IMG/VR virus record: IMGVR_UViG_3300036822_000136
Coordinates: 1 to 36,867 of that record
DNA from: a virus
DNA: 36,867 nt
Reading direction: 5' to 3' (one strand)
Position numbers and translations under genes: made by a program. This document shows, piece after piece, positions 16,268-36,867 of this stretch. Position 1 is the first letter of the stretch. Each line of letters opens with the position of its first letter. The notes under the pieces were generated by a model. The model worked only from the letters and a program-made list of their open reading frames with translations, did no database searches and was not told the DNA's origin.

Positions 16268-16888
16268 TCAGGCGAGGCGCGGCGCGAACATCTTGCGCTT
16301 GTTGCGGAAGGCAAAGCCGAGCCCGACAAAGCCGAGCAGCAGCATGCCCCAGGTTGCAGGCTCTGGTACAGCCGCCACAGCCGTTTCGATGCGGTTGTGT
16401 TCGAAGGTGAATAGACTTCCGGTGGAATCGGTTAGCGTTAGCGAGTTGATCACTTCACCGTTGATGGCGTTCACCGTGAACCCGGACTGGCCATTACCGA
16501 TAGTGCCGAGATCAAAGTTGAACGTTCCGTCCGTAGCGTTCACGGCCAGCTTCACGTCGCCTGTGCCCGTCAAACTGAACACCTCCGTCGTGGTACCAAC
16601 TACGACGGTGTTGGTCGGGTCGAACACTTGATCGGTCAGACTACTGGTGTTGCCAATCTTTATGTCGTTGCCGTTGGCAGCGAACGTAAAGCCGGTCGAT
16701 AGGTTCGTGTAACGAACCACATCGAGATGCTGGCCATTGAGATGACCTAGAGCACTGTTGGTGCTCGAGGAGTCGGCGACGACGTTGTCGCCCGTCCCGC
16801 TCAGTTGAGGAAGGACTGTAACGTCTGCCATCGCTGGCGACGCCAGCGCAAAGCACAGTGCCGCCGTGCCAAGTAGAAGTTTTTTCAT
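16268..16888 (-). CDS. PEPxxWA-CTERM secreted protein
   Basis: 206 residues from ATG 16888, with CGAGGACCAA as RBS. A signal peptide (KKLLLGTAALCFALASPAMA) is followed by a beta-rich Thr/Asn/Gly-rich domain. The C-terminus has VPEPATWGMLLLGFVGLGFA and then RNKRK. This is the PEP-CTERM sorting signal of the PEPxxWA type: a PEP motif, a hydrophobic helix and a basic end. Such proteins are exported and processed by host exosortase. The mature domain is unlike any I recognise. The sorting machinery is not in this window. Confidence 0.9.
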   Translation of the reverse strand: MKKLLLGTAALCFALASPAMADVTVLPQLSGTGDNVVADSSSTNSALGHLNGQHLDVVRYTNLSTGFTFAANGNDIKIGNTSSLTDQVFDPTNTVVVGTTTEVFSLTGTGDVKLAVNATDGTFNFDLGTIGNGQSGFTVNAINGEVINSLTLTDSTGSLFTFEHNRIETAVAAVPEPATWGMLLLGFVGLGFAFRNKRKMFAPRLA

Positions 16889-16974
16889 TTGGTCCTCGTT
16901 TTAGTTGTTGATCTTAGACTTCGGGTTAGATTGGCCACCGCGCGTACGCGACAGCCGTTGTTGTTGCGCTTCCG

Positions 16975-17628
16975 CTAGGCAACGCCGAGAACGCGGCGAC
17001 GCTTGTGGAAGGCAAACGCCAAGCCGACGAAACCGAGGAGCATCATGCCCCACGTCGCGGGCTCAGGAACGGCGGCACTAATATCAATACCGCCGTTGAA
17101 CGAGCCTTCTCCGACCGAGGTGATCGTGTAGTGCTCATCAGCAGTAAACAGCGCACCGGCGAATGCAGCGTTGGTCGAAAACGCTGAGTCAGACACCCCG
17201 GTGAACAACGGAGTGGTGGCAAGCGTAACGCCGTTGATGGTGGTGCGCTCGATCACGGACCATCCCGCCGTCTGGCCGCTGACCGAAAATGACGACAAGA
17301 AGTCTTGCAGCGCATTCGGCCCCTTGAGGCCGGTTGCAGTGATGTCCAGGACCAGCGTGTGAGTGCCGGTCGTGGTCTGATCAACGTCCAACGTGTTGCT
17401 CGACAAGATGCCGGGAGGCGCTAGAAACGTTTCTGAGTTGATGCTCAGCGAATTCAGGTTGAATGCGCCGAACGATTGGTTCGTGACAGTTAAGCTACCG
17501 TCAGGGCTGGAGGCAGAGCCTGCCACCACTCCGTCAACCGTCGCCGTTAGGTTGATGGCGTCGGCATAAGCAGCTGACGCCGATAGCGCGCTGGCCGCAG
17601 CCAACGCGACAAGAAGTTTCCATGTCAT
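16975..17628 (-). CDS. PEPxxWA-CTERM secreted protein
   Basis: 217 residues from ATG 17628 (MTWKLLVALAAASALSASA), with GAGCGACTCCCA upstream; the longer frame to 17667 lacks an RBS. Signal peptide first, then a beta-rich Thr/Ser/Asn-rich domain (about residues 25-185). The C-terminal VPEPATWGMMLLGFVGLAFA and HKRRR form the same sorting tag as its neighbour. The two mature domains are otherwise not obvious paralogues. Both are probably transcribed together leftward with the 15800 gene. Confidence 0.9.
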   Translation of the reverse strand: MTWKLLVALAAASALSASAAYADAINLTATVDGVVAGSASSPDGSLTVTNQSFGAFNLNSLSINSETFLAPPGILSSNTLDVDQTTTGTHTLVLDITATGLKGPNALQDFLSSFSVSGQTAGWSVIERTTINGVTLATTPLFTGVSDSAFSTNAAFAGALFTADEHYTITSVGEGSFNGGIDISAAVPEPATWGMMLLGFVGLAFAFHKRRRVLGVA

Positions 17629-17829
17629 TGGGAGTCGCTCCACTGTGGGGTTCAACGCCGCACTCACTCACCGCGGGCCGTGGTCCGCGTGTCGCCGTTT
17701 GTTTGACTCAGAGATTCCCAAGCGCGGCGACCTTATGCCCAAAATGTCGCACGCGGTATATATCTAACGATAGTTCCGCTTAAGTTTTCCCCGTTGTCCG
17801 CGGATGACCGCAGCTCTTAAGCTCTGCGC

Positions 17830-18624
17830 ATGATTCACCGCTTCGTCCCGCGTGGCATTGCGCCGCCGACCTACCGGCGCACGGTGCCGCAATGGCTGCG
17901 CGCGCTGAGCGATCCGCCGCCGGTGTTCGATGACGACGAAGCCTATGAATTGATTGCGCATATCCGCAATACCGGGCAACTCGGCTCGGGCGAGATCCGC
18001 GAGGTCGATTCCTGGTATGGGCGACCGTGGGCGTCTGCCACGGTGGCGGCGCCGGTCAGCAAAGACGCCTCCGAGCGCACCAACGCCGAGATCCGCGCCG
18101 CCATGGCGGTCGAGGAGGCCAGGGCCGAGGCGCAAGCCAAAGCCCGGCGCGAGCAGTTCGCCAAAGAGCTGGTGCAGCTGCGCAAGCAGGTGGCCAAGCG
18201 CAAGGCCGAGCGCGATGAGCGCGACCGCCGCCGTCGTGAACATGAGCGTGCGCAATGGGAAGCGGCGCGCGAATACGAGCGCCTGCAGCTCGAGCGCCAG
18301 CGTGAGCAGGCCCGGCGCGATCGCGAATGGAACGAAGCCACCGCCAAGGCCGATGCCGAGCTGGCGGCGAAGATCCTGGCCAAGCAGCGGGTGCAGCAAG
18401 CCGAGGACATGGCGCATCGCCAGCGGGCGCCCGACCCCAACATTGTCCTCAAGCTGGCGCATGAGCATCGCAAGGCGGAAATTCTTCGCGCGCTCGAGGC
18501 GCTGCGTCAGCAGGGCGTGCGCGATATCCGCGTCGGCGATCTGATGCGGGTGATCGGTTGCAGCGATGAAGCCGAGATCCATCGCTGTGTGCAGGAACTG
18601 GGATTAGCGTGGCGGCCGGGATGA
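17830..18624 (+). CDS. coiled-coil protein with a C-terminal winged-helix-like end
   Basis: 264 residues from ATG 17830. Residues about 80-195 are a long Glu/Arg/Ala-rich coiled coil (AMAVEEARAEAQAKARREQF and onward). The last 60 residues (EILRALEALRQQGVRDIRV and IGCSDEAEIHRCVQ) look like a small winged helix. A 272-codon frame exists on the other strand, but its Leu/Gly/Arg-rich content looks like a complement of coiled coil. Possibly a structural or DNA-organising phage protein; the family is not recognised. Confidence 0.75.
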   Translation: MIHRFVPRGIAPPTYRRTVPQWLRALSDPPPVFDDDEAYELIAHIRNTGQLGSGEIREVDSWYGRPWASATVAAPVSKDASERTNAEIRAAMAVEEARAEAQAKARREQFAKELVQLRKQVAKRKAERDERDRRRREHERAQWEAAREYERLQLERQREQARRDREWNEATAKADAELAAKILAKQRVQQAEDMAHRQRAPDPNIVLKLAHEHRKAEILRALEALRQQGVRDIRVGDLMRVIGCSDEAEIHRCVQELGLAWRPG

Positions 18625-18706
18625 CCTGGGAAAACGGTTAAGTTCGACTTGAAAGTGCGCGGATCTCGGCGCAGCCTTGGTGGTCTCAACCGCAAAGGAT
18701 GGCCCG

Positions 18707-18949
18707 ATGGATCAGCAGCTTGTAAATGACCACAAAGCCCTGAAATTTCGCGAGATCGCCGAGCGCCGAGTTAATGCGATCGTGAAGGCATTGAGGTTGA
18801 TCGGCAACCTATCGCGCAAGCACAGCTATCAATACTCCGACTTGGAGGTTGATAAGATGTTCAGCGCCTTGCGCGATGCGTTGGACACCACGGAGGCGAA
18901 ATTCAAGGACAATCCGCCGCCGGTCCAACCCGGATTTCGGTTCGAGTGA
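18707..18949 (+). CDS. hypothetical small helical protein
   Basis: 80 residues from ATG 18707 (MDQQLVNDHKALKFREIAER), with AAAGGATGGCCCG before it. It is basic at the start and helical throughout, ending in a Pro-rich tail. It follows the coiled-coil gene by 82 bp on the same strand, and the winged-helix gene begins 37 bp later. No family is recognised. Confidence 0.65.
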   Translation: MDQQLVNDHKALKFREIAERRVNAIVKALRLIGNLSRKHSYQYSDLEVDKMFSALRDALDTTEAKFKDNPPPVQPGFRFE

Positions 18950-18986
18950 TCTGTTCAGCTTCCAGTATGGCGTACGGAGTCGTCCG

Positions 18987-19325
18987 ATGGCTGACGACGA
19001 CGATGATGATGATGACGATCAGGGCGCGTTCCGGTTCACCGATCCGCAGACGTCGCGCGATGCCGCGAAGTCGATCAAGGTCGGACCGATCATGTGGAAG
19101 ATCCTTGAATATCTGCAGCACCAGCCGATTCCGCGCAACGGTCAGGAAATCACCGATGCGCTCGAGCTGGTGTCGATCACGGTGGTGCCGCGGCTGGCGC
19201 CGATGCGACGCTGGGAGCTGATCGTCGACGTCGGCACCAGCGTCAACCCGCGCTCGGGCCGCATGCAGATGGCCTATGTGATCACCGACAAAGGCCGCAA
19301 GTTGCTCAGTAAGGACGCCGTCTGA
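18987..19325 (+). CDS. small winged-helix protein with a poly-Asp N-terminus
   Basis: 112 residues from ATG 18987, with GGAGTCGTCCG upstream. It begins MADDDDDDDDDQGAFRF, encoded by a GAC/GAT repeat. Then a winged-helix-like fold: TSRDAAKSIKVGPIMWKILEY, ITDALELVSITVVPRLAPM, RRWELIV and MAYVITDKGRKLL. This resembles a small DNA-binding regulator, and the acidic start could mask or mimic DNA. Its 3' end overlaps a leftward 49-codon gene by 20 bp. Confidence 0.7.
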   Translation: MADDDDDDDDDQGAFRFTDPQTSRDAAKSIKVGPIMWKILEYLQHQPIPRNGQEITDALELVSITVVPRLAPMRRWELIVDVGTSVNPRSGRMQMAYVITDKGRKLLSKDAV

Positions 19326-19455
19326 GATGCATCGGGCTCGGGCGCAGGAAGCACAGCGGCAAGCCATCATCGAACATGACCAGCGGACCGTCGCCGTAGC
19401 CATAGGCGATCAGCGCGCGGAGGATGCGCAGGCGGGCGATGTGCAACGAGGTCAT
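19306..19455 (-). CDS. 49-residue hypothetical protein
   Basis: Found by reading the minus strand: ATG 19455 with GGGGAAGCAATC upstream, 49 codons to TGA 19306. It begins MTSLHIARLRILRALIAYG and contains DDGLPLCFLRPSP. The third-position GC is high. The opposite strand also has an open frame (from 19326), but its composition is poor. Convergent with the winged-helix gene. Function unknown. Confidence 0.55.
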   Translation of the reverse strand: MTSLHIARLRILRALIAYGYGDGPLVMFDDGLPLCFLRPSPMHLRRRPY

Positions 19456-19512
19456 GATTGCTTCCCCAGTTTTCTGTCTCGACTGATTCAAAAAAAAGCC
19501 TAACATTCGCAA

Positions 19513-20715
19513 ATGCGTATACGCCTCACCCAGATTGACGGCAAGCTGCCCAATCTCGCGCTGATGAAGTTGGCGCACTATCACAAAGCGCGCGGCGACG
19601 AAATCGTCTTTTCTAAGCAGATCGAGCGTCCCAATACCGAACTGAACTACGATCGGGTTTATGGCTCGGCGATTTTCTCGTTCTCGGCTGAGCGAGTGAC
19701 GAAGTTCAAGCAGCACTGGCCGAATGCGTTCGTCGGCGGCACGCACAATGTGCTCGATAACATCACTGTCGAACAAATGCTCGGCATTGAGGAGTACGAA
19801 CACTATGACTATTCGATTTTTCCAAACTTTGAAGGTTCGATCGGCTTTACACAGCGCGGGTGTAGGCTCAAGTGCGGGTTTTGCGTCGTGCCGAAAAAAG
19901 AAGGTAAGGCGCGGTCAGTAAACACTATCGAACAAATTTATCGCGGCGAACGGACGCCAGACAATTTTAAGGCGGCGCTGAAGCGCTGGAAGGATCAGTT
20001 CGCCGAGCATGAGCGTAACAAACCGCAATTGCTCGATCTATTTCCCTCCGTTGAAGAACAACATAAATGGGAACTGCAAAAAGCTGCATTAGAGAAGGAC
20101 AAACCTGGCAGATATCACAAACTGCATCTACATCTACTCGACAATGACTTCTTTGGCCAGCCGCGCGAACAGTGGCAGGCACGGATGCGTGAGATCATTG
20201 ATGGTAAATTCAAGGTCTGTTTTAATCAGGGCATCAACACACGCATGATTGATGATGAAAGTGCCGAGGCGCTTGGTTCAATCCAGTTATATGACGACAG
20301 TTTCAAAACACGGCGTCTCTACACCGCGTGGGATAATCTCGGCGACGAAGAACGATTTTTCAAAGGCGTCGATACGCTCGAACGGCACGGCGTGAAGCCG
20401 TACAGTTTGCTGGTTTACATGCTGGTCGGCTACGACAAGCGCGAGACTTGGGACCGGGTACTCTACCGGTTCCGGCGTATGACCGAGCGTAAGATCCGAC
20501 CCTACCCGATGGTTTATGGCGATCGGCGACGGCAGCTCGAGCCGCAGCATCCGAGCTTGGGTCATCGCACTCTGGCCGAGTTCCAGCGTTGGGCCATACG
20601 TAAATACTACACCGTTGTTTCGTTTGAGGATTATGACGGCTCGGCCACAGAAAAGTTGGTCAAGACGGCAGATGGTTACCAGCCGCTATTAGCACTCACG
20701 GATGACTCTGTGTAA
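19513..20715 (+). CDS. radical SAM enzyme, unknown substrate
   Basis: 400 residues from ATG 19513. Residues 1-105 look like a cobalamin-binding-type Rossmann domain (MRIRLTQIDGKLPNLALMK and VYGSAIFSF). GCRLKCGFC (C117, C121, C124) is the CxxxCxxC [4Fe-4S] site of radical SAM enzymes. HLLDNDFFGQPREQW and FNQGINTRMID follow, typical of the barrel. A 60-residue insertion after the cluster is charged and helical. The region is AT-richer than its neighbours, pointing to transfer. The ParB-like gene at 20836 follows, so they may act together. Substrate unknown. Confidence 0.85.
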   Translation: MRIRLTQIDGKLPNLALMKLAHYHKARGDEIVFSKQIERPNTELNYDRVYGSAIFSFSAERVTKFKQHWPNAFVGGTHNVLDNITVEQMLGIEEYEHYDYSIFPNFEGSIGFTQRGCRLKCGFCVVPKKEGKARSVNTIEQIYRGERTPDNFKAALKRWKDQFAEHERNKPQLLDLFPSVEEQHKWELQKAALEKDKPGRYHKLHLHLLDNDFFGQPREQWQARMREIIDGKFKVCFNQGINTRMIDDESAEALGSIQLYDDSFKTRRLYTAWDNLGDEERFFKGVDTLERHGVKPYSLLVYMLVGYDKRETWDRVLYRFRRMTERKIRPYPMVYGDRRRQLEPQHPSLGHRTLAEFQRWAIRKYYTVVSFEDYDGSATEKLVKTADGYQPLLALTDDSV

Positions 20716-20792
20716 AAGCACAGACAAGCACGGCCACGCACACGAGTTTTAATTTGACTCTCGCAATATCGGCGCGCACCATCACACACGCA

Positions 20793-20815
20793 CCAGCACA
20801 TCAGAGCTGGTTTTT
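20793..20815 (+). terminator. short Rho-independent terminator or attenuator
   Basis: CCAGC (20793-20797) and GCTGG (20806-20810) pair over 5 bp with an 8-base loop, followed by TTTTT. It lies between the radical SAM gene and the ParB-like gene. The stem is short, so partial termination is likelier than full. Confidence 0.5.
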
Positions 20816-20835
20816 CTAGCGAGAGGAAATCAGCC

Positions 20836-21894
20836 ATGCCCGAGCAATCAGTGTTCGAGGAAATTATGTTGCATCATCCTCCCCCACTGCGAATCGAGCA
20901 CACGTTAGCCAAGGTTGATCTGATCGACTTTGATCTCGACAACCCACGGCTCCGCTACCTGCGTAGCCTCAATCCCGGGAAGTCCGACAGCGATCTGCTG
21001 TTTGACGATAACGACACCAAATGGCTCAAAGGCGATATCAAGGAAAAGGGGTTGCTTGACGCGCCATACGTCAAGCGCATTGCAGGCGGTCGCCATATCT
21101 GTGTCGAAGGCAACCGCCGACTGGCGTGTATGAAAAGCCTCACAGCTGAGTTCCCGGACGATGCCAAGTTCAAATGCATCCAGGTCCGGGTCTTGCCAGA
21201 AACGACGACAGAGGCCCAAGCCGCATTGCTCATGGCCTCGTTCCACGTCGCAGGCAAGTTGCAATGGGATGCACACGAAAAAGCCGGGCACATCTACCAC
21301 ATGACGCACGTGCTCAAAATCCCAGAAGAGGAACTGAAAAATACACTCCACATGGGTGCTCCGGCGATCAAGCGCACCGCCGAATCATATCGCATCCTAC
21401 GCGAAGTGTTTTGTACGATTGATCAGGGTGCCTACGCAAAGGATGCGGACGGTAAATGGTCTTTCTTCTCCGAAATGGTCAAGGATAAGCAATTGCGATC
21501 CCGCTATCACGAGAAGGACCCACGCTGGTGCGAGACATTCTCGCGTTGGGTGGGTGAAGGCCGCATCCCGAATGCTGCCGATGTACGTGCACTCCCGGAG
21601 ATTCTGGCACAGTCAAACGCGCGCAGAATCTTTGAAACTTCGCCCGCTGAGGAAGCATTCCGACTGTCTCGCATGGAGACCGATCGCAGCAATCCGGCCA
21701 ATATGAGCACTTTCTACAAGCAACTCCAAAAACTGCTTGATACGCTGATGGCCGCTGAGTTCAGGGACATCGAGCTCGCCGGTAATAACGAGGCCGCCAA
21801 ACTGCTCTTGCAGGACACCTACGCCAAGATCGGCGAATTCATGGAGCGGGCTGGAGTCCGTGTCATGCCGTCGTCGACTCGTCGCGTCGCCTGA
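20836..21894 (+). CDS. ParB-like nuclease-fold protein
   Basis: 352 residues from ATG 20836, with GAGAGGAAATCAGCC upstream. Residues 20-120 match the ParB/Srx-type N-terminal domain: VDLIDFDLDNPRLRYL, IKEKGLLDAPYVKRI and VEGNRRLACMKSL (EGNRR, 91-95). The remaining 230 residues are helical, with a dimer-like end. In phages such stand-alone ParB proteins are found beside DNA-modification or nucleotide-processing enzymes rather than a ParA. No ParA is near. The base composition resembles the radical SAM gene upstream. Confidence 0.85.
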   Translation: MPEQSVFEEIMLHHPPPLRIEHTLAKVDLIDFDLDNPRLRYLRSLNPGKSDSDLLFDDNDTKWLKGDIKEKGLLDAPYVKRIAGGRHICVEGNRRLACMKSLTAEFPDDAKFKCIQVRVLPETTTEAQAALLMASFHVAGKLQWDAHEKAGHIYHMTHVLKIPEEELKNTLHMGAPAIKRTAESYRILREVFCTIDQGAYAKDADGKWSFFSEMVKDKQLRSRYHEKDPRWCETFSRWVGEGRIPNAADVRALPEILAQSNARRIFETSPAEEAFRLSRMETDRSNPANMSTFYKQLQKLLDTLMAAEFRDIELAGNNEAAKLLLQDTYAKIGEFMERAGVRVMPSSTRRVA

Positions 21895-21907
21895 AGCAGA
21901 CGCCTAC

Positions 21908-21941
21908 CCTAGCGATCGCATTTCCCAATCCGATCGCTAGG
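21908..21941. terminator. perfect hairpin after the ParB-like gene
   Basis: CCTAGCGATCG (21908-21918) and CGATCGCTAGG (21931-21941) pair over 11 bp with a 12-base loop, 14 bp after the ParB-like stop. There is no T-run, so it may terminate weakly, protect the mRNA 3' end or bind a protein. Confidence 0.55.
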
Positions 21942-21979
21942 TCCTCAGCAAAATCAGATTTCGAACCAGGGTCATTCCC

Positions 21980-22336
21980 ATGGCTATGGACAACTTTGCT
22001 GTGCGCCAACTTGCCGATGGTCGGTGGATATGTATCGAGCTTGATCCCGATCCACCTTGGCGATCGTTTGAGCGTGAGACCCCAACGTGGCTCTGTCGCG
22101 AGCTTCATAGCGAGCCAGGGAGTAACCCAGATCAGGAAAGTGTTTTACGCCACCTCGGCGACGATCTCACTTTTCGGCAATGTCGCTTTGACGTCGTGGC
22201 CGAGCAGCTCGAGCAGCACGCGGACACGATCCTTCCCGCTCATACCTTGGTAGATGCCACCAAGGCCGCCCCAGAGATCGTTGCGATTGACGACACGGAT
22301 GCGATCGCCAAGCTTGAGCACTTTGGGCTCAGGTAG
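21980..22336 (+). CDS. possible small protein overlapping the NusG-like gene
   Basis: 118 codons from ATG 21980. The first 55 (MAMDNFAVRQLADGRWICIE and a Trp/Asp/Pro-rich part) look protein-like. The remaining codons run antisense over the end of the NusG-like gene, an overlap of 192 bp. A gene truncated by recombination and now ending in foreign sequence would fit. A short true gene with a missed frameshift near 22145 would also fit. Weak RBS. Confidence 0.35.
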   Translation: MAMDNFAVRQLADGRWICIELDPDPPWRSFERETPTWLCRELHSEPGSNPDQESVLRHLGDDLTFRQCRFDVVAEQLEQHADTILPAHTLVDATKAAPEIVAIDDTDAIAKLEHFGLR

Positions 22337-22660
22337 CCGAATAAGCCCGCCGCGCTCCTTAGCTTTGATCCGGTTGATCTCGTTTTCCGACACGCAAGCT
22401 GGTTGATCGCCAGCGAGGAGCACGTCGAGAATGCCGATGCACGACTTGATCGGCGACCATCGGTCAATCACCCGAACGAACAGGTACGACCGGAACAACG
22501 GCTCAATGCGCGAGATGGTCCGCGTGCGCTGGCTGCGATCGCGTACGTGGTAGACCGTCTTGATGCGCGGTAAGTACGTTTCGTAGCCGAATCGGCCAAG
22601 CCAGAGGGCAGCTGTCGTCTCGCGCTGGTTCTCGGTCTGAGCAACGGACCAGTACGCCAA
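22145..22660 (-). CDS. NusG-like transcription (anti)termination factor
   Basis: 171 residues starting at TTG 22660, with GAGGCGCGCAA upstream. The first 110 residues have the NGN layout (AYWSVAQTENQRETTAALWL and EPLFRSYLFVRVID). The C-terminus has a KOW-like segment (LKLGDRIRVVNRNDLWGGLG and VRVLLELLGHDV). Such phage NusG/RfaH paralogues modulate RNA polymerase on selected operons. It lies alone on its strand next to the structured region at 22661-23204. Which transcripts it serves is unknown. Confidence 0.85.
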   Translation of the reverse strand: MAYWSVAQTENQRETTAALWLGRFGYETYLPRIKTVYHVRDRSQRTRTISRIEPLFRSYLFVRVIDRWSPIKSCIGILDVLLAGDQPACVSENEINRIKAKERGGLIRLPEPKVLKLGDRIRVVNRNDLWGGLGGIYQGMSGKDRVRVLLELLGHDVKATLPKSEIVAEVA

Positions 22661-26843: not shown

Positions 26844-28481
26844 ATGCCCGACATCATCGATATCTCTGGCCGGTTCAATCGGCCGACCGGCAAAAAGGCA
26901 GAAGACGCCTTGCGCATGCTCGAGGAGCTGGCGGGCGAGCGGGCGCCGTGGGAAGAGCCGGGGTTGAAGCGTCGTTCCGATAAGGTTATCGCCTTTTGCC
27001 AGGACATGACGATTACGAGCGGGCCGTTGAGCGGCAAGAAAATCACCCTCCGCCCATGGCAAAAAAAGTTCATCCGCGCGGTCTACGGCGTCGACAAGAC
27101 CGGCAATCGCCGGGTGCGCACGGCGATCCTCAGTCTTGGAAGGAAAAACGGCAAGACTCAGCTCGCTGCTTGCTTGGCGCTATGCCATCTCTCCGGCCCG
27201 GAGAGCGAGAGCCGCGGCGAGGTCTATTCGTGCGCCAACGATCGCCTGCAGGCGAGCAAGCTGTGCAACGAGATGATTGCGATGATCGTCAATCATCCGT
27301 GGCTGGCGATGCGCACGCGGGTGTTGCGCGGCCGCAAGCAGATTGATGATCTGGTCACCGAGTCGACCTATCAAGCACTGTCACGCGAAGCAAACACAAA
27401 AATGGGTTTGAACCCAAGTTTTGTTTGCTACGACGAATTGGGCTCCGCCAAGGGTCGCGACTTGTACGACGCGATGGATTCGGCGCTCGGCGGTCGCAAA
27501 GAACCGTTGTTGTTGGTGATCAGCACGCAGGCCGCCGACGACTTCGCGCCCATGTCGCAGCTGATCGACTACGGGCTCAAAATCGAACAGGGCGACATTC
27601 AAGATCCGGCGTTTCATCTGACGCTGTTCACGGCGCCGGAAAATGCTGACCCCTGGAACCCGGCCAGTTGGGAAGCCGCCAACCCGGCGCTCGGCGACTT
27701 CCTCTCGCTCGAGCACGTGGCGCGCATGGCCAAGCAGGCGCAGCGCATCCCGGCGCGCGAGAATTCCTTCCGCAATCTGGTGCTCAATCAGCGCGTCGCC
27801 GCCGAGACCCGATTTGTTGATCGCATCACCTGGAACGCCTGTGCAGGCGCGGCGGTGATTCCGCGCGGGGTGCACGTCTATGCCGGGCTCGACCTCGGCG
27901 CCACCCGCGATTTGTCGGCGCTGGTGATCGTCGCCGTTGATCCAAACGGGTGCTGGAATATCCAGCCGCATTGCTGGATTCCGGGGAAGGATCTCAAGGA
28001 GCGCAGCGATCTCGATCGCGTGCCATACGAGGCCTGGGTGCGCGACGGCGCCATCATGCCGATCGGCGAGTCGACAGACCCGAAGGTAATCGCGCACAAG
28101 ATCGCGCAGATCAACGGCATCACCCCGATCGATCTACTGGCATTTGATCGGTGGCGAATTGCTGATCTCAAACGCGAGCTGGATGCGATTGGCTGTCCGG
28201 TCGTGCTCGAGCCGTTCGGCCAAGGGTTCAAGGATATGAGTGCCGCAGTTGATATTGTTGAACGATTGCTGATTCAGAAAAAGCTCAGACACGGCGGCCA
28301 CCCGGTGCTGACATGGTGCGCGCACAACGCCGTGGTGGTGCGCGATCCGGCAGGCGGGCGCAAGTTTGATAAAGCGAAAAGCTCCGGCCGCATTGATGCG
28401 CTGGTCGCGGCGAGCATGGCGTTGAGCCTCGCGCTGACGCGGGCGCCGAAGGCGGTGGACATTGATGCGTTGATAGGATAG
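26844..28481 (+). CDS. terL: terminase large subunit
   Basis: 545 residues from ATG 26844. It packages phage DNA into proheads. LGRKNGKTQLA (K104) is Walker A, VCYDELG (D197, E198) Walker B and LLVISTQA the coupling motif. The C-terminal nuclease has AGLDLGATRDLSA (D350), LAFDRWR (D435) and GRIDALVAAS (D518), three acids for metal binding. It is a typical full-length Terminase_1-like protein. No small terminase is directly upstream: the space holds divergent small genes instead. It stops at 28481, and a leftward gene with its terminator follows. Confidence 0.95.
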   Translation: MPDIIDISGRFNRPTGKKAEDALRMLEELAGERAPWEEPGLKRRSDKVIAFCQDMTITSGPLSGKKITLRPWQKKFIRAVYGVDKTGNRRVRTAILSLGRKNGKTQLAACLALCHLSGPESESRGEVYSCANDRLQASKLCNEMIAMIVNHPWLAMRTRVLRGRKQIDDLVTESTYQALSREANTKMGLNPSFVCYDELGSAKGRDLYDAMDSALGGRKEPLLLVISTQAADDFAPMSQLIDYGLKIEQGDIQDPAFHLTLFTAPENADPWNPASWEAANPALGDFLSLEHVARMAKQAQRIPARENSFRNLVLNQRVAAETRFVDRITWNACAGAAVIPRGVHVYAGLDLGATRDLSALVIVAVDPNGCWNIQPHCWIPGKDLKERSDLDRVPYEAWVRDGAIMPIGESTDPKVIAHKIAQINGITPIDLLAFDRWRIADLKRELDAIGCPVVLEPFGQGFKDMSAAVDIVERLLIQKKLRHGGHPVLTWCAHNAVVVRDPAGGRKFDKAKSSGRIDALVAASMALSLALTRAPKAVDIDALIG

Positions 28482-29543: not shown

Positions 29544-30977
29544 ATGTTCGCAGCGTTCGACATAGCGTTCGGTCACGCGCCGACGATGACGCTAACGGTG
29601 GCGGCCACCGTCGCCATCGCCCCGCCCGACGACAGCGTCGACACCAACAAGATCATCGTTACCGGCACCGGCACCGTCAGCTCGCTCGGGCCGGGGCCAC
29701 TGCCGCCGTACGGCCAACCCGACGAAGAGGTGCCAACGCCGTGGGGCGTGAGCAAACAGGTGACCTGGATTCCGCAAGATGCGACGCATCCGATCACTCT
29801 GGTCTACAGCCCGACGCTGCAGCTGCTCGGCAGTGTCAACCGCACCATAACCGTCAAGACGATCTGCGATTACAGCTGGGACCCGATCGCCCAGGGGTGG
29901 ATCGAGGAGAGCTACACCGACACCACGCAATCGAAAGGCGGTGGCGGTAGCGGCGGCACCGGACCGCAAGGCCCAGCCGGACCCGCCGGACCCGCCGGAC
30001 CCGCGGGTCCGGGCTACAAAGCCACCAGCACCAGCGCCGTCAACATCGCCACCGGGGCGCAAACCTTCACCACGCAATCCGGGCTTGCCTACACGATCGG
30101 TGCGCGGACGCGCGCCAGCTCCAATGGCACGCCGACGAGCTGGATGGAGGGCCGGGTCACCGCCTATAGCGGCACATCGCTCACCATCGGCGTCGATCTC
30201 ATCAGCGGCAGCGGTACATTTTCCGATTGGAACATCAACCTCGCCGGTGTGCAGGGCGCGCAAGGCGCCACCGGCGCGCAGGGCAACCAAGGTCTGCAAG
30301 GAAATGCAGGCCCGCCCGGCCCAACCGGCCCGCAAGGCATCCAAGGCAATCCCGGCGCTACCGGATCGACCGGGCCCGCGGGTCCAGGCTATACGGCGAC
30401 CAGCGGGTCATCGATCGCTGTCAGTAACGGCGCCAAGACGTTCGTTACACAATCCGGACTCGCCTACACGGTCGGCGCCCGGGCGCGCGCCGCGTCGAAC
30501 GGCGCACCAACAAACTGGGTGGAGGGCCAAGTCACCGCGTATAGCGGGACGTCACTGGTCATCAACGTCGATCTAACAAACGGCTCAGGCACGTTCGCCG
30601 ATTGGACCATCAATCTCGCGGGTGTGCAGGGCACGCAAGGCGCCACGGGCCCGCAGGGCTCGCAGGGTGTGCCCGGCGCCGCCGGTGCACAAGGCCCGCA
30701 GGGCATCCAAGGCAATCCCGGCGCTACCGGGCCGCAAGGTCCGGCGGGCCCGACCGGATCGGCTGGCCCGACCGGGGCGAGCTACGTCGCCACCAGTACG
30801 ACCAGCTTGCCGATTGCAGCCGGTCCAGCGACGATCACGACGCAAGCCGGGCTCGCTTATATGGTCGGCGCGCGCACGCGATTGAGTTCAAATTCCAATC
30901 CATCGCAATGGATGGAAGGAGTTGTTACGGCTTACAGTGGTACATCGTTGACCATAAATGTTGATCTACACAGTTAG
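29544..30977 (+). CDS. collagen-like repeat protein, likely virion fibre
   Basis: 477 residues from ATG 29544 (an internal ATG 29586 is possible). Residues 1-135 are a beta-rich head, followed by a Gly-rich hinge. Three Gly-X-Y collagen stretches (about 138-157, 235-285 and 335-390) alternate with a beta module of about 75 residues that recurs three times (the shared motif is TAYSGTSL). The third copy ends early at DLHS. Collagen-like repeats trimerise and are common in phage tail fibres. Being between terminase and capsid genes is unusual for a tail protein. It may act in virion decoration or host attachment. Confidence 0.8.
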   Translation: MFAAFDIAFGHAPTMTLTVAATVAIAPPDDSVDTNKIIVTGTGTVSSLGPGPLPPYGQPDEEVPTPWGVSKQVTWIPQDATHPITLVYSPTLQLLGSVNRTITVKTICDYSWDPIAQGWIEESYTDTTQSKGGGGSGGTGPQGPAGPAGPAGPAGPGYKATSTSAVNIATGAQTFTTQSGLAYTIGARTRASSNGTPTSWMEGRVTAYSGTSLTIGVDLISGSGTFSDWNINLAGVQGAQGATGAQGNQGLQGNAGPPGPTGPQGIQGNPGATGSTGPAGPGYTATSGSSIAVSNGAKTFVTQSGLAYTVGARARAASNGAPTNWVEGQVTAYSGTSLVINVDLTNGSGTFADWTINLAGVQGTQGATGPQGSQGVPGAAGAQGPQGIQGNPGATGPQGPAGPTGSAGPTGASYVATSTTSLPIAAGPATITTQAGLAYMVGARTRLSSNSNPSQWMEGVVTAYSGTSLTINVDLHS

Positions 30978-31051: not shown

Positions 31052-31108
31052 GCGCGGCGGCTTGCAGTGGCGTCGCGTTCGTCGTTCGCCCCAAAGGGAA
31101 ATCGCGCG

Positions 31109-31324
31109 ATGCCCGACGACGACCAGCAGCAAAGCTTCACGCTCGAGCGCGGGCCCGACCCCTGGCACAAGCTGCCGAGCTTGGCAGCGCGGCTCGGTGT
31201 CGAGCCTTGCAGCGGGCCGATGGCGGGTCGCGTCATCGTGAGCAATCGCGAGGGCAAGCGCTACGATTTGTTTGAGCTGGTCAACGCGTTGCTCGATCGG
31301 CTCGATCGTGCGGCCCAGGACTAA
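31109..31324 (+). CDS. hypothetical small protein
   Basis: 71 residues from ATG 31109, with AAGGGAAATCGCGCG as RBS. It starts MPDDDQQQSFTLERGPDPWH, then helices (KLPSLAARLGVEP and YDLFELVNALLDRLDRAAQD). It lies between the collagen-like and zeta genes on the same strand. It overlaps a leftward frame (31281-31490) by 44 bp. Function unknown. Confidence 0.65.
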   Translation: MPDDDQQQSFTLERGPDPWHKLPSLAARLGVEPCSGPMAGRVIVSNREGKRYDLFELVNALLDRLDRAAQD

Positions 31325-31490
31325 GCAAGCGCGATGACCGATCTCCCGGAATTGGTAGGTCAATTCCCTCCTGGCGAAACAGCTCTTTCAGCTGGCGCCA
31401 GCAGGCGAGGCCGCGACTGTGGTGCCAGAGGCGCGTCATCGGGCGCATGGGAAACCACGCGCGTAGGATATGCGCCCAGATGCAAGTCAT
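31281..31490 (-). CDS. possible leftward small protein
   Basis: 69 codons from ATG 31490. The first 55 residues (MTCIWAHILRAWFPMRPMTR and LWHHSRGLACWRQLKELFR) read like a real protein with GC-rich third positions, but there is no clear RBS. It overlaps the end of the gene at 31109. The plus strand also has an open frame here (31334-31558) that looks worse. Keep as uncertain. Confidence 0.4.
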   Translation of the reverse strand: MTCIWAHILRAWFPMRPMTRLWHHSRGLACWRQLKELFRQEGIDLPIPGDRSSRLLSPGPHDRADRATR

Positions 31491-31554
31491 TAGCCACAGT
31501 GCTCGTACGACGTTCCGCATCCGCGATGACTACCACAGGACTAAAGCAAGCGCG

Positions 31555-32694
31555 ATGACCGACGACGTCGCCAAAGCCAACGCGCAGACGGAGTTCATGA
31601 ACGACTGCGTGCCGTACTTCATCGATGAGGGCAAGGACCAGGATCAGGCGATCGCGATCTGTCTGCATCTGTGGGAAGGCAAGCGCTGGCGCGGCATCCG
31701 CGCTCGCGCCGAGCAGCTGCAGGCCCGGCGCCGTCACGCCGACAACAAGGCCCGCTTTGCGGCGCTGCGCTATCAGCCGCATCCGTGGCGGGCGCTGCGC
31801 CAACGCGCGGCCGAGCTGCTGGTGCGGTTCGATCCCGACGAGCCGCGCGACGAATCCGGCAAATGGACCGACGGCGGCGGTGGTGGCAGCGACGGCGGCG
31901 GCAAAAAACCAGCCAGCGAGACCAAGCCCGCTGTCGCCGCACATGCCAATCCCAAGGTCAAGGAGATCATCGAGAAGGTCCCCGGCGCGCAAGCCGCGAT
32001 CGAGCGCGCTGTCGACAAGCTCGCCAGCGGCAAGCCCAGCGATGCGCCGGTCGGCGAAGGCGGCTACAAACGCTCGGATGGCTTCTACACCGCGCCGCGC
32101 CAAAAGGTGCACGCCGAGATCCTGGAGAAGATCTTCACCCCGGAGAAGATCGCTGCCGCCACGCCCAAGCCGGGCGAGCAGCCGACCGCGCATCTGCTCG
32201 GCGGCTCCGGCGGTTCCGGCAAGGGCTGGTTCACTAAGCCGGACGGCACGGTGCGCACCGACAATGCGATCTATCTGAATTCCGATGACATGAAGGCGAT
32301 GCTGCCCGACTACAAGGGCTGGAACGCGCCGTTGCTACATGAGGAATCGAGCGAGCTGCTGCGGCTGACGGAAAACATCGCCATGGCCCAAGGTCTCAAC
32401 GTCATCATCGACGGCACCATGGGCAAATACGACGGGCTGGCCAAGCGCATCGATCGCTACAAGACCGGCGGCTATCGGGTGGAAGGTCACTTCATGCGGG
32501 TGACACCGGAGACGTCAGCAACCCGCGCGCTGCAGCGGTTCGTGCGCGGCGGCGAGAGCGGCCGCTACGTGCCGCCGGAAATGCTGCTCGCGCATCCGGC
32601 GACCGCTAACTTCGAGAAGGCGCGCAGCAAGATGGACGCCTGGGAGATGTATGACAACGAGGGCACCAAACCGAAGTTTGTCAGCCGCGGCTAG
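31555..32694 (+). CDS. zeta-toxin-type kinase with a virion-like N-terminus
   Basis: 379 residues from ATG 31555. Residues 14-40 (FMNDCVPYFIDEGKDQDQAI and onward, C18 and C36) match the N-terminus of the protease-capsid fusion at 34417. Residues 91-108 (RFDPDEPRDESGKWTDGG) are a motif common in phage head proteins. From about residue 210, LLGGSGGSGKGWF (K223) is Walker A, then YLNSDDMKAMLPDYKGW, SSELLRLTENIAMAQGLNV and IIDGTMGKYDG fit the zeta-toxin/PNK-like kinase fold. Zeta toxins phosphorylate UDP-GlcNAc, but this one may have another target. No epsilon antitoxin is adjacent. The location and N-terminus suggest a virion-packaged enzyme. Confidence 0.85.
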   Translation: MTDDVAKANAQTEFMNDCVPYFIDEGKDQDQAIAICLHLWEGKRWRGIRARAEQLQARRRHADNKARFAALRYQPHPWRALRQRAAELLVRFDPDEPRDESGKWTDGGGGGSDGGGKKPASETKPAVAAHANPKVKEIIEKVPGAQAAIERAVDKLASGKPSDAPVGEGGYKRSDGFYTAPRQKVHAEILEKIFTPEKIAAATPKPGEQPTAHLLGGSGGSGKGWFTKPDGTVRTDNAIYLNSDDMKAMLPDYKGWNAPLLHEESSELLRLTENIAMAQGLNVIIDGTMGKYDGLAKRIDRYKTGGYRVEGHFMRVTPETSATRALQRFVRGGESGRYVPPEMLLAHPATANFEKARSKMDAWEMYDNEGTKPKFVSRG

Positions 32695-34416: not shown

Positions 34417-36867
34417 ATGCCCATGAAACCGCACAAGGGTGAAAGCCAGGACGCGTTCATGAAGCGTTGCGTGCCCGACATGATGGGCGACGGTAAGCGT
34501 GAGCAGGACCAAGCCGTCGCTGCTTGCATGTCGATCTGGCGCGACGACAAGGGGCAGAAGCAACCCGAGGGCAAAGACTTTGCCGACCCCGGTTATCGCG
34601 GCGACGGCGGCAAGCGCTATGTGATCGATACTGCCGATCAGGTGCGCACGGCATGGCACAACATTCATCGCGCCGGTGAAATCTATACCAAGGCGCAGGA
34701 CGATCGCATCAAGGCGCGCATCATCTCGGCCTGGAAAGTGCTGATCGACAAGGCCGGGCCGCCCGACCTGGGCGATGCCAGCAACCGCGCGGCGTTGCGC
34801 CAGCATGTCGTGACGGTGACCAAACAGGACTGCCCAGAAGTCGACGCCGACGAAAGCCACGACGACTACATCGAGCGCTGCATGTCGGAAATGGGCGACA
34901 TGGCCGACGATGACGCCGAGGAAGCGTGTCAGCTGGCCTGGGAAGAATCCAACGACAATGAGCGTAGTGGCGACGCTGTGCTGCTGCACAAGACGATGGC
35001 GACGCCGAGCACCGGCATGGAGTTCGTGCTGTCGGACGGGACCCCGGATCGGTTTGGTGACGTGATCGAACCGCTTGGCTGGAAAATCGACACCTTCGCT
35101 TCCAACCCCATTGCCCTCTTCAATCACAATACTTCGTTCGTTATCGGCCGCTGGCGGAACCTGCGCGTCACCGACAAGGATCTGCGCGGCGATCTCGAGC
35201 TGGCGCCCAAGGGCACCAGCGACCGCATCGATGAGATCCGCAAACTGATTGAGGCCGACATTTTACGCGCGACTAGCGTCGGCTTCCGGCCGATCGCATC
35301 CGCGCCGATCAACGCTAAGGACCCGTGGGGCGGTGTGCACTACACCGAACACGAGTTGGTCGAGACCAGCGTGGTCGCTGTCCCAGCCAATCCCAATGCG
35401 CTGGCGGTAGCCAAAGGCTTAGGCGTTTCTGGGAATACGTTGCGCATGGTGTTTGGCGAGCAAGCCGACAAGGGCACCATCGTGCAGCGCGAGTATCGAG
35501 CGCAACGGGGCGAGCACGCCGACACACCAAAGCGCGAGACGACGACGACCAAACAAACTGGCGAGCATGCCGATCCCAAACAGATTGGAGCACAACGGAG
35601 GACTCCCATGTTGCTCTCGCAGCGAATTCAGGAACTGGAAAAGAGCTTACTGGCGGATCAAGACGATCTCGACCGCCATCTGGAAACCATTGACGACGAC
35701 AATCCGACCGAAGAGCAGATGGCGCTGACCGAAGATAAGACCACTAAGATCGAGAACAAGCAGCGTCAGCTCAACAACCTCAAGACGGTCGAGGCCAAGA
35801 ACGGCAACGGTGCGATCGACACCTCGACTGCGACGGCCGTCGCTCGGCGTAAGAGCAACGAGATCCGGCTTCCGGCCGAGCTGGCCCCGCGTCCGGCCAA
35901 GAAGGCTGACCCGCTCGATTTCATCGTGCGCGCCGCCATCGTCCGTGCCAAATCAAAGGTCGAAGGCGTCAGCATCGACGATATGCGGCGCAAGATCTAT
36001 GGCGACGACGAAGCCACCCGCATCATGACCGATCTGGTGTTGAAGGCGGCGACCGCTCCGGCGGAAACCACCGTCACGGGGTGGGCGGCTGAACTGGTCC
36101 GCACCGTGTGGGCGGCGTGGATGGACGTCTTGCTGCCTGTTTCGGTATTGCCAAAGCTAAGCGCGATCGGTCTCGGCCTCACGTTCGGACAGAACGGCCG
36201 CATTGTCATTCCGACGCGCTCGCTGACGCCGTCGATCGCCGGTGCGTTTGTTGGTGAAGGTCAACCAATTCCGGTGCGTCAGGGCGCCTTCACCTCGCAG
36301 ACCCTGACTCCCAAGAAACTTGCTGTTATCACTTCCTGGACTAAAGAGATGGAGGACTTTTCCATTCCAGCAATTGAGGGTCTGCTACGGCAGGCGATCA
36401 TCGAAGACACGGCGGTGGCGCTCGATACGGTATTGCTCGACAACAACGTCGCCACCGCGATCCGGCCACCCGGCTTGCGCTCTTACGGCGCTGGTCTGAC
36501 GCCGAGTGCAACGACTCCATTCGCCAACTTTGTCGCCGATTACAACGCGCTCTATGGTGCGCTGCTGACAGCGACCAAGGGTAACGTGCGCCGCCCGGTG
36601 ATCTTGCTCAACCCGACGGAGGTGCAGTCACTCAGCATGCTGCAACCGCCCAACGCAGCGGCGCCGTTATTCCCGTTCATGACGATGCTGGATAACAACC
36701 GGCTGGTCCGCGCCGATCTTGTTGAATCGTCGACGGTGACTGCGGGAACGGCGATCATGCTCGACGCGGCCGATTTCACCACCGCCGGTGCTGAAGGTCC
36801 GCGCATGGACATTTCAGATACTGCGACTCTGCATATGGAAGATACGGCTCCGGCGGATATCGTGTCC
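34417..36867 (+). CDS. prohead protease-major capsid protein fusion (3' end outside the window)
   Basis: Open for 817 codons from ATG 34417 (GATGGAGGCAGAA upstream) to the window end. Residues 13-41 (AFMKRCVPDMMGDGKREQDQ and onward) match the zeta-kinase N-terminus. Residues 55-110 resemble a DUF6582/ChaB-like domain. A Cys-containing repeat follows near 165-195. The HK97-type protease spans about 210-345 with H237 (LFNHN) and S287 (ATSVGF) as catalytic candidates. A coiled delta-like region lies at about 400-465. The HK97-fold capsid domain runs from about 520 onward (VGEGQPIPVRQGAF, LNPTEVQSL). An in-frame ATG at 35608 (codon 398) has CGGAGGACTCCC before it and could start a capsid-only product. 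Confidence 0.92.
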   Translation, partial: MPMKPHKGESQDAFMKRCVPDMMGDGKREQDQAVAACMSIWRDDKGQKQPEGKDFADPGYRGDGGKRYVIDTADQVRTAWHNIHRAGEIYTKAQDDRIKARIISAWKVLIDKAGPPDLGDASNRAALRQHVVTVTKQDCPEVDADESHDDYIERCMSEMGDMADDDAEEACQLAWEESNDNERSGDAVLLHKTMATPSTGMEFVLSDGTPDRFGDVIEPLGWKIDTFASNPIALFNHNTSFVIGRWRNLRVTDKDLRGDLELAPKGTSDRIDEIRKLIEADILRATSVGFRPIASAPINAKDPWGGVHYTEHELVETSVVAVPANPNALAVAKGLGVSGNTLRMVFGEQADKGTIVQREYRAQRGEHADTPKRETTTTKQTGEHADPKQIGAQRRTPMLLSQRIQELEKSLLADQDDLDRHLETIDDDNPTEEQMALTEDKTTKIENKQRQLNNLKTVEAKNGNGAIDTSTATAVARRKSNEIRLPAELAPRPAKKADPLDFIVRAAIVRAKSKVEGVSIDDMRRKIYGDDEATRIMTDLVLKAATAPAETTVTGWAAELVRTVWAAWMDVLLPVSVLPKLSAIGLGLTFGQNGRIVIPTRSLTPSIAGAFVGEGQPIPVRQGAFTSQTLTPKKLAVITSWTKEMEDFSIPAIEGLLRQAIIEDTAVALDTVLLDNNVATAIRPPGLRSYGAGLTPSATTPFANFVADYNALYGALLTATKGNVRRPVILLNPTEVQSLSMLQPPNAAAPLFPFMTMLDNNRLVRADLVESSTVTAGTAIMLDAADFTTAGAEGPRMDISDTATLHMEDTAPADIVS

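What the first reader, a model, noticed from the sequence alone, without database searches (positions are those of the whole stretch)
31555..32694. Zeta-type kinase carrying a virion-protein N-terminal module
Residues 14-40 of the kinase and residues 14-41 of the protease-capsid fusion share FM-x2-CVP, GK, DQA and C-x3-W at almost the same positions. The RFDPDEPRDESGKWTDGG segment is also typical of phage head proteins. This suggests the kinase is packaged or head-bound and delivered at infection, rather than acting as a plasmid-style toxin. There is no epsilon antitoxin gene next to it.
Basis: partly seen in the sequence, partly recalled or inferred. Interest (0 to 1): 0.78.

Follow-up and report, generated by a model that had tools for sequence, protein, structure and literature searches.

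The report
Phage kinase with head-protein address tags
A soil phage encodes a toxin-like kinase whose front end copies the start of phage head-assembly proteases and continues into a linker motif shared by many enzymes encoded among phage head genes, so it is probably packed in the virus particle and injected at infection; kinases of this sort in phage heads were already known, but this way of addressing them to the head was not.

Summary
Window 31555-32694 encodes a 379-aa Zeta-type kinase. Its residues 7-43 match the N-terminus of the phage's own protease-capsid fusion, and this module ("CVP") is otherwise found mainly in head maturation proteases (30 of 37 proteins scanned). The segment RFDPDEPRDESGKWTDGGG (residues 91-109) is a recurrent linker "tag": 44 non-redundant viral loci carry it, 36 of them beside recognisable head genes and 11 in the same ORF as portal or protease-capsid. 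Tagged ORFs carry ADP-ribosyltransferase, ParB-like, GNAT-like, Acb1 or kinase domains. One unrelated locus (L152) repeats the layout CVP-tag-enzyme. Kinase relatives at about 61% identity are tag-kinase alone (L103) or a kinase inside a MuF-type head protein (L104). In cyanophage P-SS2 a published study found a MuF protein in virions, and I find a Zeta domain in it. The best reading is head cargo, injected at infection, not a toxin-antitoxin pair. Zeta-MuF fusions were already described (Iyer 2017), so this is a new variant of a known kind. What appears new is the protease-type N-terminal module on a free cargo enzyme, the shared tag, and cargo translated in frame with protease-capsid. Packaging, cleavage, substrate and target are not shown.

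The parts
31555..32694 (+). Zeta-type kinase ORF, 379 aa (ATG 31555; an upstream in-frame ATG at 31447 is not conserved in L002)
31573..31683 (+). N-terminal CVP module, residues 7-43 (F-M-x2-C-V-P ... D-Q-A ... C-x3-W); predicted helical hairpin
31825..31881 (+). linker tag RFDPDEPRDESGKWTDGGG, residues 91-109, at the start of a disordered stretch
31951..32691 (+). kinase domain, residues 133-379; Walker A GGSGGSGKG with K223, D244 (aligned with Zeta Asp67), T288, R328, R337
34417..36867 (+). protease-capsid fusion (runs off the window end); start at 34417 has an upstream GGAGG
34435..34545 (+). CVP module of the protease-capsid protein, residues 7-43
34837..34911 (+). second, weak CVP copy in the protease-capsid protein (10.7 bits)
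26844..28481 (+). terminase large subunit, 43.6% identical to HK97 TerL; fixes the late head-gene setting
31067..31324 (+). 85-aa ORF upstream of the kinase, no known family; its counterpart overlaps the kinase start in L002

Best explanation
The kinase is head cargo. It is made with the late head proteins and directed into the assembling procapsid by its N-terminal module, which is the N-terminal extension of head maturation proteases. The tag and disordered linker join address and cargo and may be where the prohead protease trims it. The kinase domain is carried in the virion and injected with the DNA. Inside the new host it phosphorylates a small molecule, either a UDP-amino sugar as in Zeta toxins or NAD as in AvrRxo1, to alter cell-wall precursor or nucleotide pools, or a defence response, in the phage's favour. 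Shown by sequence: the domains, the module's source, the tag's head-gene setting, conserved active-site residues and purifying selection. Inferred: packaging, trimming, injection, substrate and benefit.
For: Module shared with the phage's own protease-capsid; in other phages it sits just ahead of HK97-type prohead protease (L046, L094), and 30 of 37 module proteins carry S78 or S78_2 protease. Tag: 44 non-redundant loci, 36 with a detected head gene, 11 in the same ORF as portal or protease-capsid; cargo domains ART, ART-PolyVal, ADPrib_exo_Tox, ParB_N, GNAT, Acb1. L152 repeats CVP-tag-enzyme downstream of TerL. Relatives: tag-kinase 1 kb after TerL (L103) and a MuF-type protein with Zeta and DUF7178 after the portal (L104). 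P-SS2 ORF 030 has Phage_Mu_F 154-270 plus Zeta_toxin 427-597 and averaged 96.5 peptides in purified virions (PMC2784084). K223, D244, R328 and R337 are invariant in 18 kinases.
Against: No proteomics exist for this phage. The kinase itself has no MuF, portal or capsid domain. The CVP module is missing from the 61% relatives and from the more distant kinases found. What CVP does in proteases is unknown. P-SS2 peptides are not mapped by domain, so its Zeta part could have been removed. No exact tag match was found in 385 genomes drawn from one bacterial class and no tblastn tag match in cultured phages, so hosts are unknown.
Confidence: 0.62

Rival explanations
1. The kinase acts in the producing cell late in infection, for example by blocking peptidoglycan precursor synthesis to help lysis or exclude other phages. 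The CVP module serves only dimerisation or control.
For: Late-gene position; Zeta-type kinases act on cell-wall precursors (PMC3062530, PMC5923241); no protein of this phage has been seen in virions.
Against: Does not explain a protease-type N-terminus and a tag found chiefly among head genes, nor relatives inside MuF-type head proteins.
Confidence: 0.17
2. The kinase is a structural or maturation component of the head (for example an internal ATP-binding factor) and never leaves the virion.
For: Same head-gene and module evidence as the best explanation; phage P1 DarA and Hdf line the head wall (PMC12810830).
Against: The same tag joins many unrelated enzyme types of the kind described in phage effectors (PMC5512222), which suggests interchangeable cargo rather than one structural role.
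Confidence: 0.11
3. It is the toxin of an addiction or superinfection toxin-antitoxin pair whose antitoxin is one of the unrecognised small ORFs nearby.
For: Zeta fold with conserved active-site residues; an 85-aa ORF overlaps the kinase start in L002; gonococcal epsilon1 has a fold unrelated to epsilon (PMC5923241).
Against: No epsilon match (control silent). The gene ahead of the 60%-identical kinase in L103 is a different 117-aa protein. Does not explain the N-terminal module or tag.
Confidence: 0.06

Closest known systems
Zeta kinase domains in polyvalent and MuF proteins of phages (Iyer et al. 2017, PMC5512222)
   Same: Zeta-type kinase encoded among phage head genes, predicted to be packaged and delivered; relatives here are fused to a MuF-type head protein
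   Different: this kinase is a separate 379-aa protein with no MuF or portal domain; it carries a protease-type N-terminal module and a linker tag instead
Cyanophage P-SS2 ORF 030 (PMC2784084)
   Same: Zeta domain in a head protein detected in virions
   Different: 1500-aa MuF protein, no CVP module or tag seen; only distant kinase similarity (28% over 107 residues)
Epsilon/zeta and PezAT toxins (1gvn, 3q8x, 2p5t)
   Same: kinase fold (Z about 16-17) and conserved Lys, Asp, Thr and Arg
   Different: no epsilon antitoxin found; Zeta Arg120 aligns with Gly290 (residue numbering counted from the alignment); N-terminal head module
AvrRxo1 NAD 3'-kinase (4z8u)
   Same: fold match as good as Zeta (Z 17.1 over 209 residues)
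   Different: sequence match weaker than to Zeta (E 6.5e-5 against 4e-16 for PezT); phage head setting
Head-packaged proteins of other phages (T4 Alt, P1 DarA/DdrB; PMC5512222, PMC12810830)
   Same: enzymes or defence-related proteins carried in the phage head
   Different: no sequence relation of CVP or tag to their targeting sequences was tested
MuF polymorphic toxins (Jamet et al. 2017, PMC5576092)
   Same: toxin-like domains carried by phage head proteins
   Different: toxin is fused to MuF and usually followed by an immunity-type small ORF

Membership tests
Zeta toxin kinase family (PF06414) | family profile above curated cut-off | tested here: met
   99.4 bits against cut-off 22.3, E 2.4e-28
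Zeta toxin kinase family (PF06414) | fold of solved Zeta toxins | tested here: met
   1gvn_B Z 17.1, rmsd 2.6 over 195 residues; AvrRxo1 equal at Z 17.1
Zeta toxin kinase family (PF06414) | Walker A Lys, catalytic Asp and conserved Arg residues | tested here: met
   K223, D244, R328, R337 invariant in 18 kinases; D244 aligns with Asp67
Zeta toxin kinase family (PF06414) | phosphorylates UDP-GlcNAc | not testable with these tools
   needs an assay; NAD is an alternative substrate
Epsilon/zeta toxin-antitoxin system | adjacent epsilon antitoxin gene | tested here: inconclusive
   no PF08998 match in the window, but the control genomes gave none either; flanking ORFs tested have no known family
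MuF or polyvalent-type Zeta head proteins | MuF, portal or other head domain in the same protein | tested here: not met
   only Zeta_toxin and AAA_33 score well; present in P-SS2 and L104
MuF or polyvalent-type Zeta head proteins | encoded among phage head genes | tested here: met
   TerL 26844-28481, protease-capsid from 34417, portal next in L001
Head-packaged ejection proteins | present in virion and transferred to the host | not testable with these tools
   no isolate or proteome; P-SS2 relative seen in virions
Head-packaged ejection proteins | N-terminal targeting segment, often cut by prohead protease | tested here: inconclusive
   N-terminal module shared with prohead proteases; targeting and cleavage untested

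The most novel reading that the evidence does not exclude
A head-cargo loading scheme not described before: the CVP module is a general procapsid address taken from head proteases, the RFDPDEPRDESGKWTDGGG tag is an exchange and joining point for interchangeable enzymes, and in several phages the cargo is loaded by translating it in frame with the protease-capsid gene, while an internal ribosome-binding site and start make the bulk of the protease-capsid protein.
Probability: 0.4. Interest if true: 0.82.

Novelty: new variant of a known kind. Interest (0 to 1): 0.62.

Why it matters
Which phage proteins enter the head with the DNA, and how they are addressed there, is known for only a few model phages. 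A short module shared by head proteases and cargo enzymes, together with a recognisable linker tag, would let injected enzymes be found by sequence in uncultured phages and would give a testable packaging signal for HK97-type heads. It would also place a Zeta-type kinase outside toxin-antitoxin biology as an infection tool.

Tried and rejected
Whole-kinase and tag tblastn against cultured phages found nothing; the kinase domain alone found only weak matches, the best being P-SS2. No paper in the held library contains the four tag strings tried. The exact tag pattern is absent from 385 genomes of one bacterial class, so no host could be assigned. The idea that the kinase copied its module from the neighbouring protease-capsid gene is not favoured: it scores better against the profile of other phages' modules (60.3 against 49.3 bits), although that profile was collected with the kinase as query. 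The upstream start at 31447 was rejected because L002 starts at the position of 31555. The PF08998 search is not proof of absence, as its controls were silent. Substrate assignment from sequence was left open: Zeta and AvrRxo1 fit the model equally well.

Full report
WHAT IS THERE. The window is a 36,867-base IMG/VR virus record. The kinase ORF runs from 31555 to 32694. It has three parts: an N-terminal module of about 43 residues that I call CVP, a linker holding the tag RFDPDEPRDESGKWTDGGG at residues 91-109, and a kinase domain at 133-379. Pfam Zeta_toxin matches at E 2.4e-28. An AlphaFold2 model (mean pLDDT 84.4) shows a helical hairpin at 2-41, low confidence at 88-98 and 103-125, and a confident kinase fold. 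The closest solved folds are Zeta toxin (1gvn, Z 17.1) and the NAD kinase AvrRxo1 (4z8u, Z 17.1). By sequence PezT and Zeta are closer (E 4e-16 and 1e-14) than AvrRxo1 (6.5e-5). Lys223, Asp244, Arg328 and Arg337 are invariant in 18 kinases, and Asp244 aligns with the catalytic Asp67 of Zeta (PMC3062530).

THE N-TERMINAL MODULE. The match to the phage's own protease-capsid fusion is real (16/35 identical, E 3e-10 for the pair). A search of viral contigs with the first 51 residues gave 62 loci. Among 37 module-bearing proteins scanned, 27 carry Peptidase_S78_2, 3 Peptidase_S78 and 4 a portal domain. In L046 and L094 the module sits directly ahead of the HK97-type prohead protease domain. Neither Pfam nor NCBIfam names the module in the proteins scanned. 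A profile of 46 copies gives 60.3 bits for the kinase and 49.3 for the protease-capsid; the best of 2000 shuffled kinases gives 4.5. The copies were gathered with the kinase as query, so the pairwise result and the nature of the proteins found are the more independent evidence. The module is under purifying selection (dN/dS 0.09 against L002).

THE TAG. A profile made without this kinase finds the tag only in this protein in the window (51.3 bits). A DNA pattern scan returned 45 viral stretches. After merging with earlier loci there are 44 non-redundant tag loci: 36 hold a recognisable terminase, protease-capsid or portal gene, and in 11 the tag is in the same ORF as a portal or protease-capsid domain. 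Domains in tagged ORFs include ADP-ribosyltransferases (ADPrib_exo_Tox, ART-PolyVal, ART), ParB_N, GNAT, anti-CBASS Acb1, portals, S78 protease with capsid, Mu-like protease, MuF and this kinase. Many ORFs carry two or three tags between domains. No paper in the held library contains the tag strings tried.

CARGO FUSED TO PROTEASE-CAPSID. In several contigs (including L009, L011, L019, L022, L028, L138, L142, L168 and L173) the order tag, cargo, CVP, protease-capsid is one uninterrupted reading frame. In the six such fused ORFs examined, including L004 whose contig ends early, a Met codon stands just before the CVP module; GGAGG or a close purine-rich sequence lies shortly upstream, as it does at the free-standing starts in L007 and in this window at 34417. 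This looks like nested translation: a long cargo-protease-capsid product and an internally started protease-capsid product. That is inferred from sequence, not shown.

RELATIVES OF THE KINASE. L002 (91%) has the same layout. L103 (60%) is tag plus kinase without CVP, about 1 kb after TerL. L104 and L102 (61%) hold the kinase inside a protein of about 1250 residues after a Phage_portal_3 gene, with head-morphogenesis similarity at 245-298, DUF7178 near the C-terminus and tag-like segments between domains. L152 is the most telling comparison: CVP, tag, an ART-like region (by eye), a second tag-like segment and a GNAT-like region (by eye), encoded downstream of TerL. So CVP-tag-enzyme is not unique to this kinase. 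In bacterial genomes, related kinases lie next to phage portal genes in L106 and L107 and inside large proteins in others.

EVIDENCE FOR VIRION PRESENCE. There is none for this phage. The nearest published evidence is cyanophage P-SS2: ORF 030 (17648-22147, 1500 aa) averaged 96.5 peptides in mass spectrometry of purified particles (PMC2784084). The authors called it a capsid protein. My scan shows Phage_Mu_F at 154-270 and Zeta_toxin at 427-597. Peptides were not mapped by domain. Iyer et al. (PMC5512222) had already reported Zeta-like kinases fused to MuF and proposed that they weaken the cell wall during entry. That prior description is why I rate this a new variant and not a new kind.

HOW IT MOST LIKELY WORKS. 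The kinase is made late, enters the procapsid through its protease-type N-terminus, and is injected with the DNA, where it phosphorylates UDP-amino sugars or NAD. The steps from packaging onward are inferred. An antitoxin was not found, but that search had silent controls and the small flanking ORFs are of unknown function. The main rivals are action in the producing cell, a purely structural head role, and a toxin-antitoxin pair.

LIMITS. Most loci are metagenomic fragments; several tag loci are close relatives, so 44 is not 44 independent origins. Hosts are unknown. Head-gene detection used only a few query proteins, so 36 of 44 is a lower bound. ART-, GNAT- and RelA-like regions named by eye are marked as such.

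Noticed in passing
window 31316-31562: A direct repeat (about 22 bases, ggactaa(a)gcaagcgcgatgacc) flanks about 220 extra bases between the 85-aa ORF and the kinase; L002 lacks the insert and there the two genes overlap.
   Followed up: partly
L107 8908-9489, L108 4498-5037, L110 9206-9763: HD_4-type proteins (ppGpp hydrolase-like; Pfam for L107, by eye for the others) lie beside Zeta-type kinase genes in three unrelated loci.
   Followed up: no
L163 2759-3646: Anti-CBASS protein Acb1 (E 2.3e-32) carries the tag at its C-terminal side, between TerL and capsid genes.
   Followed up: partly
L150 8022-9041: A tagged ORF whose cargo looks like a RelA/SpoT synthetase by eye; no Pfam match at E 0.001.
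   Followed up: no
window 16268-17667, minus strand: Two neighbouring secreted-looking proteins end in tails of the form VPEPATWGM-hydrophobic stretch-basic residues, resembling PEP-CTERM sorting signals, which is odd in a phage (by eye).
   Followed up: no
window 29544-30977: A collagen-repeat tail-fibre-like protein lies between terminase and the kinase, within the head-gene region.
   Followed up: no
window 19513-21894 and 22145-22660: A radical-SAM-like protein (weak Pfam match), a ParB-like protein by eye and a NusG-like protein sit next to one another.
   Followed up: no
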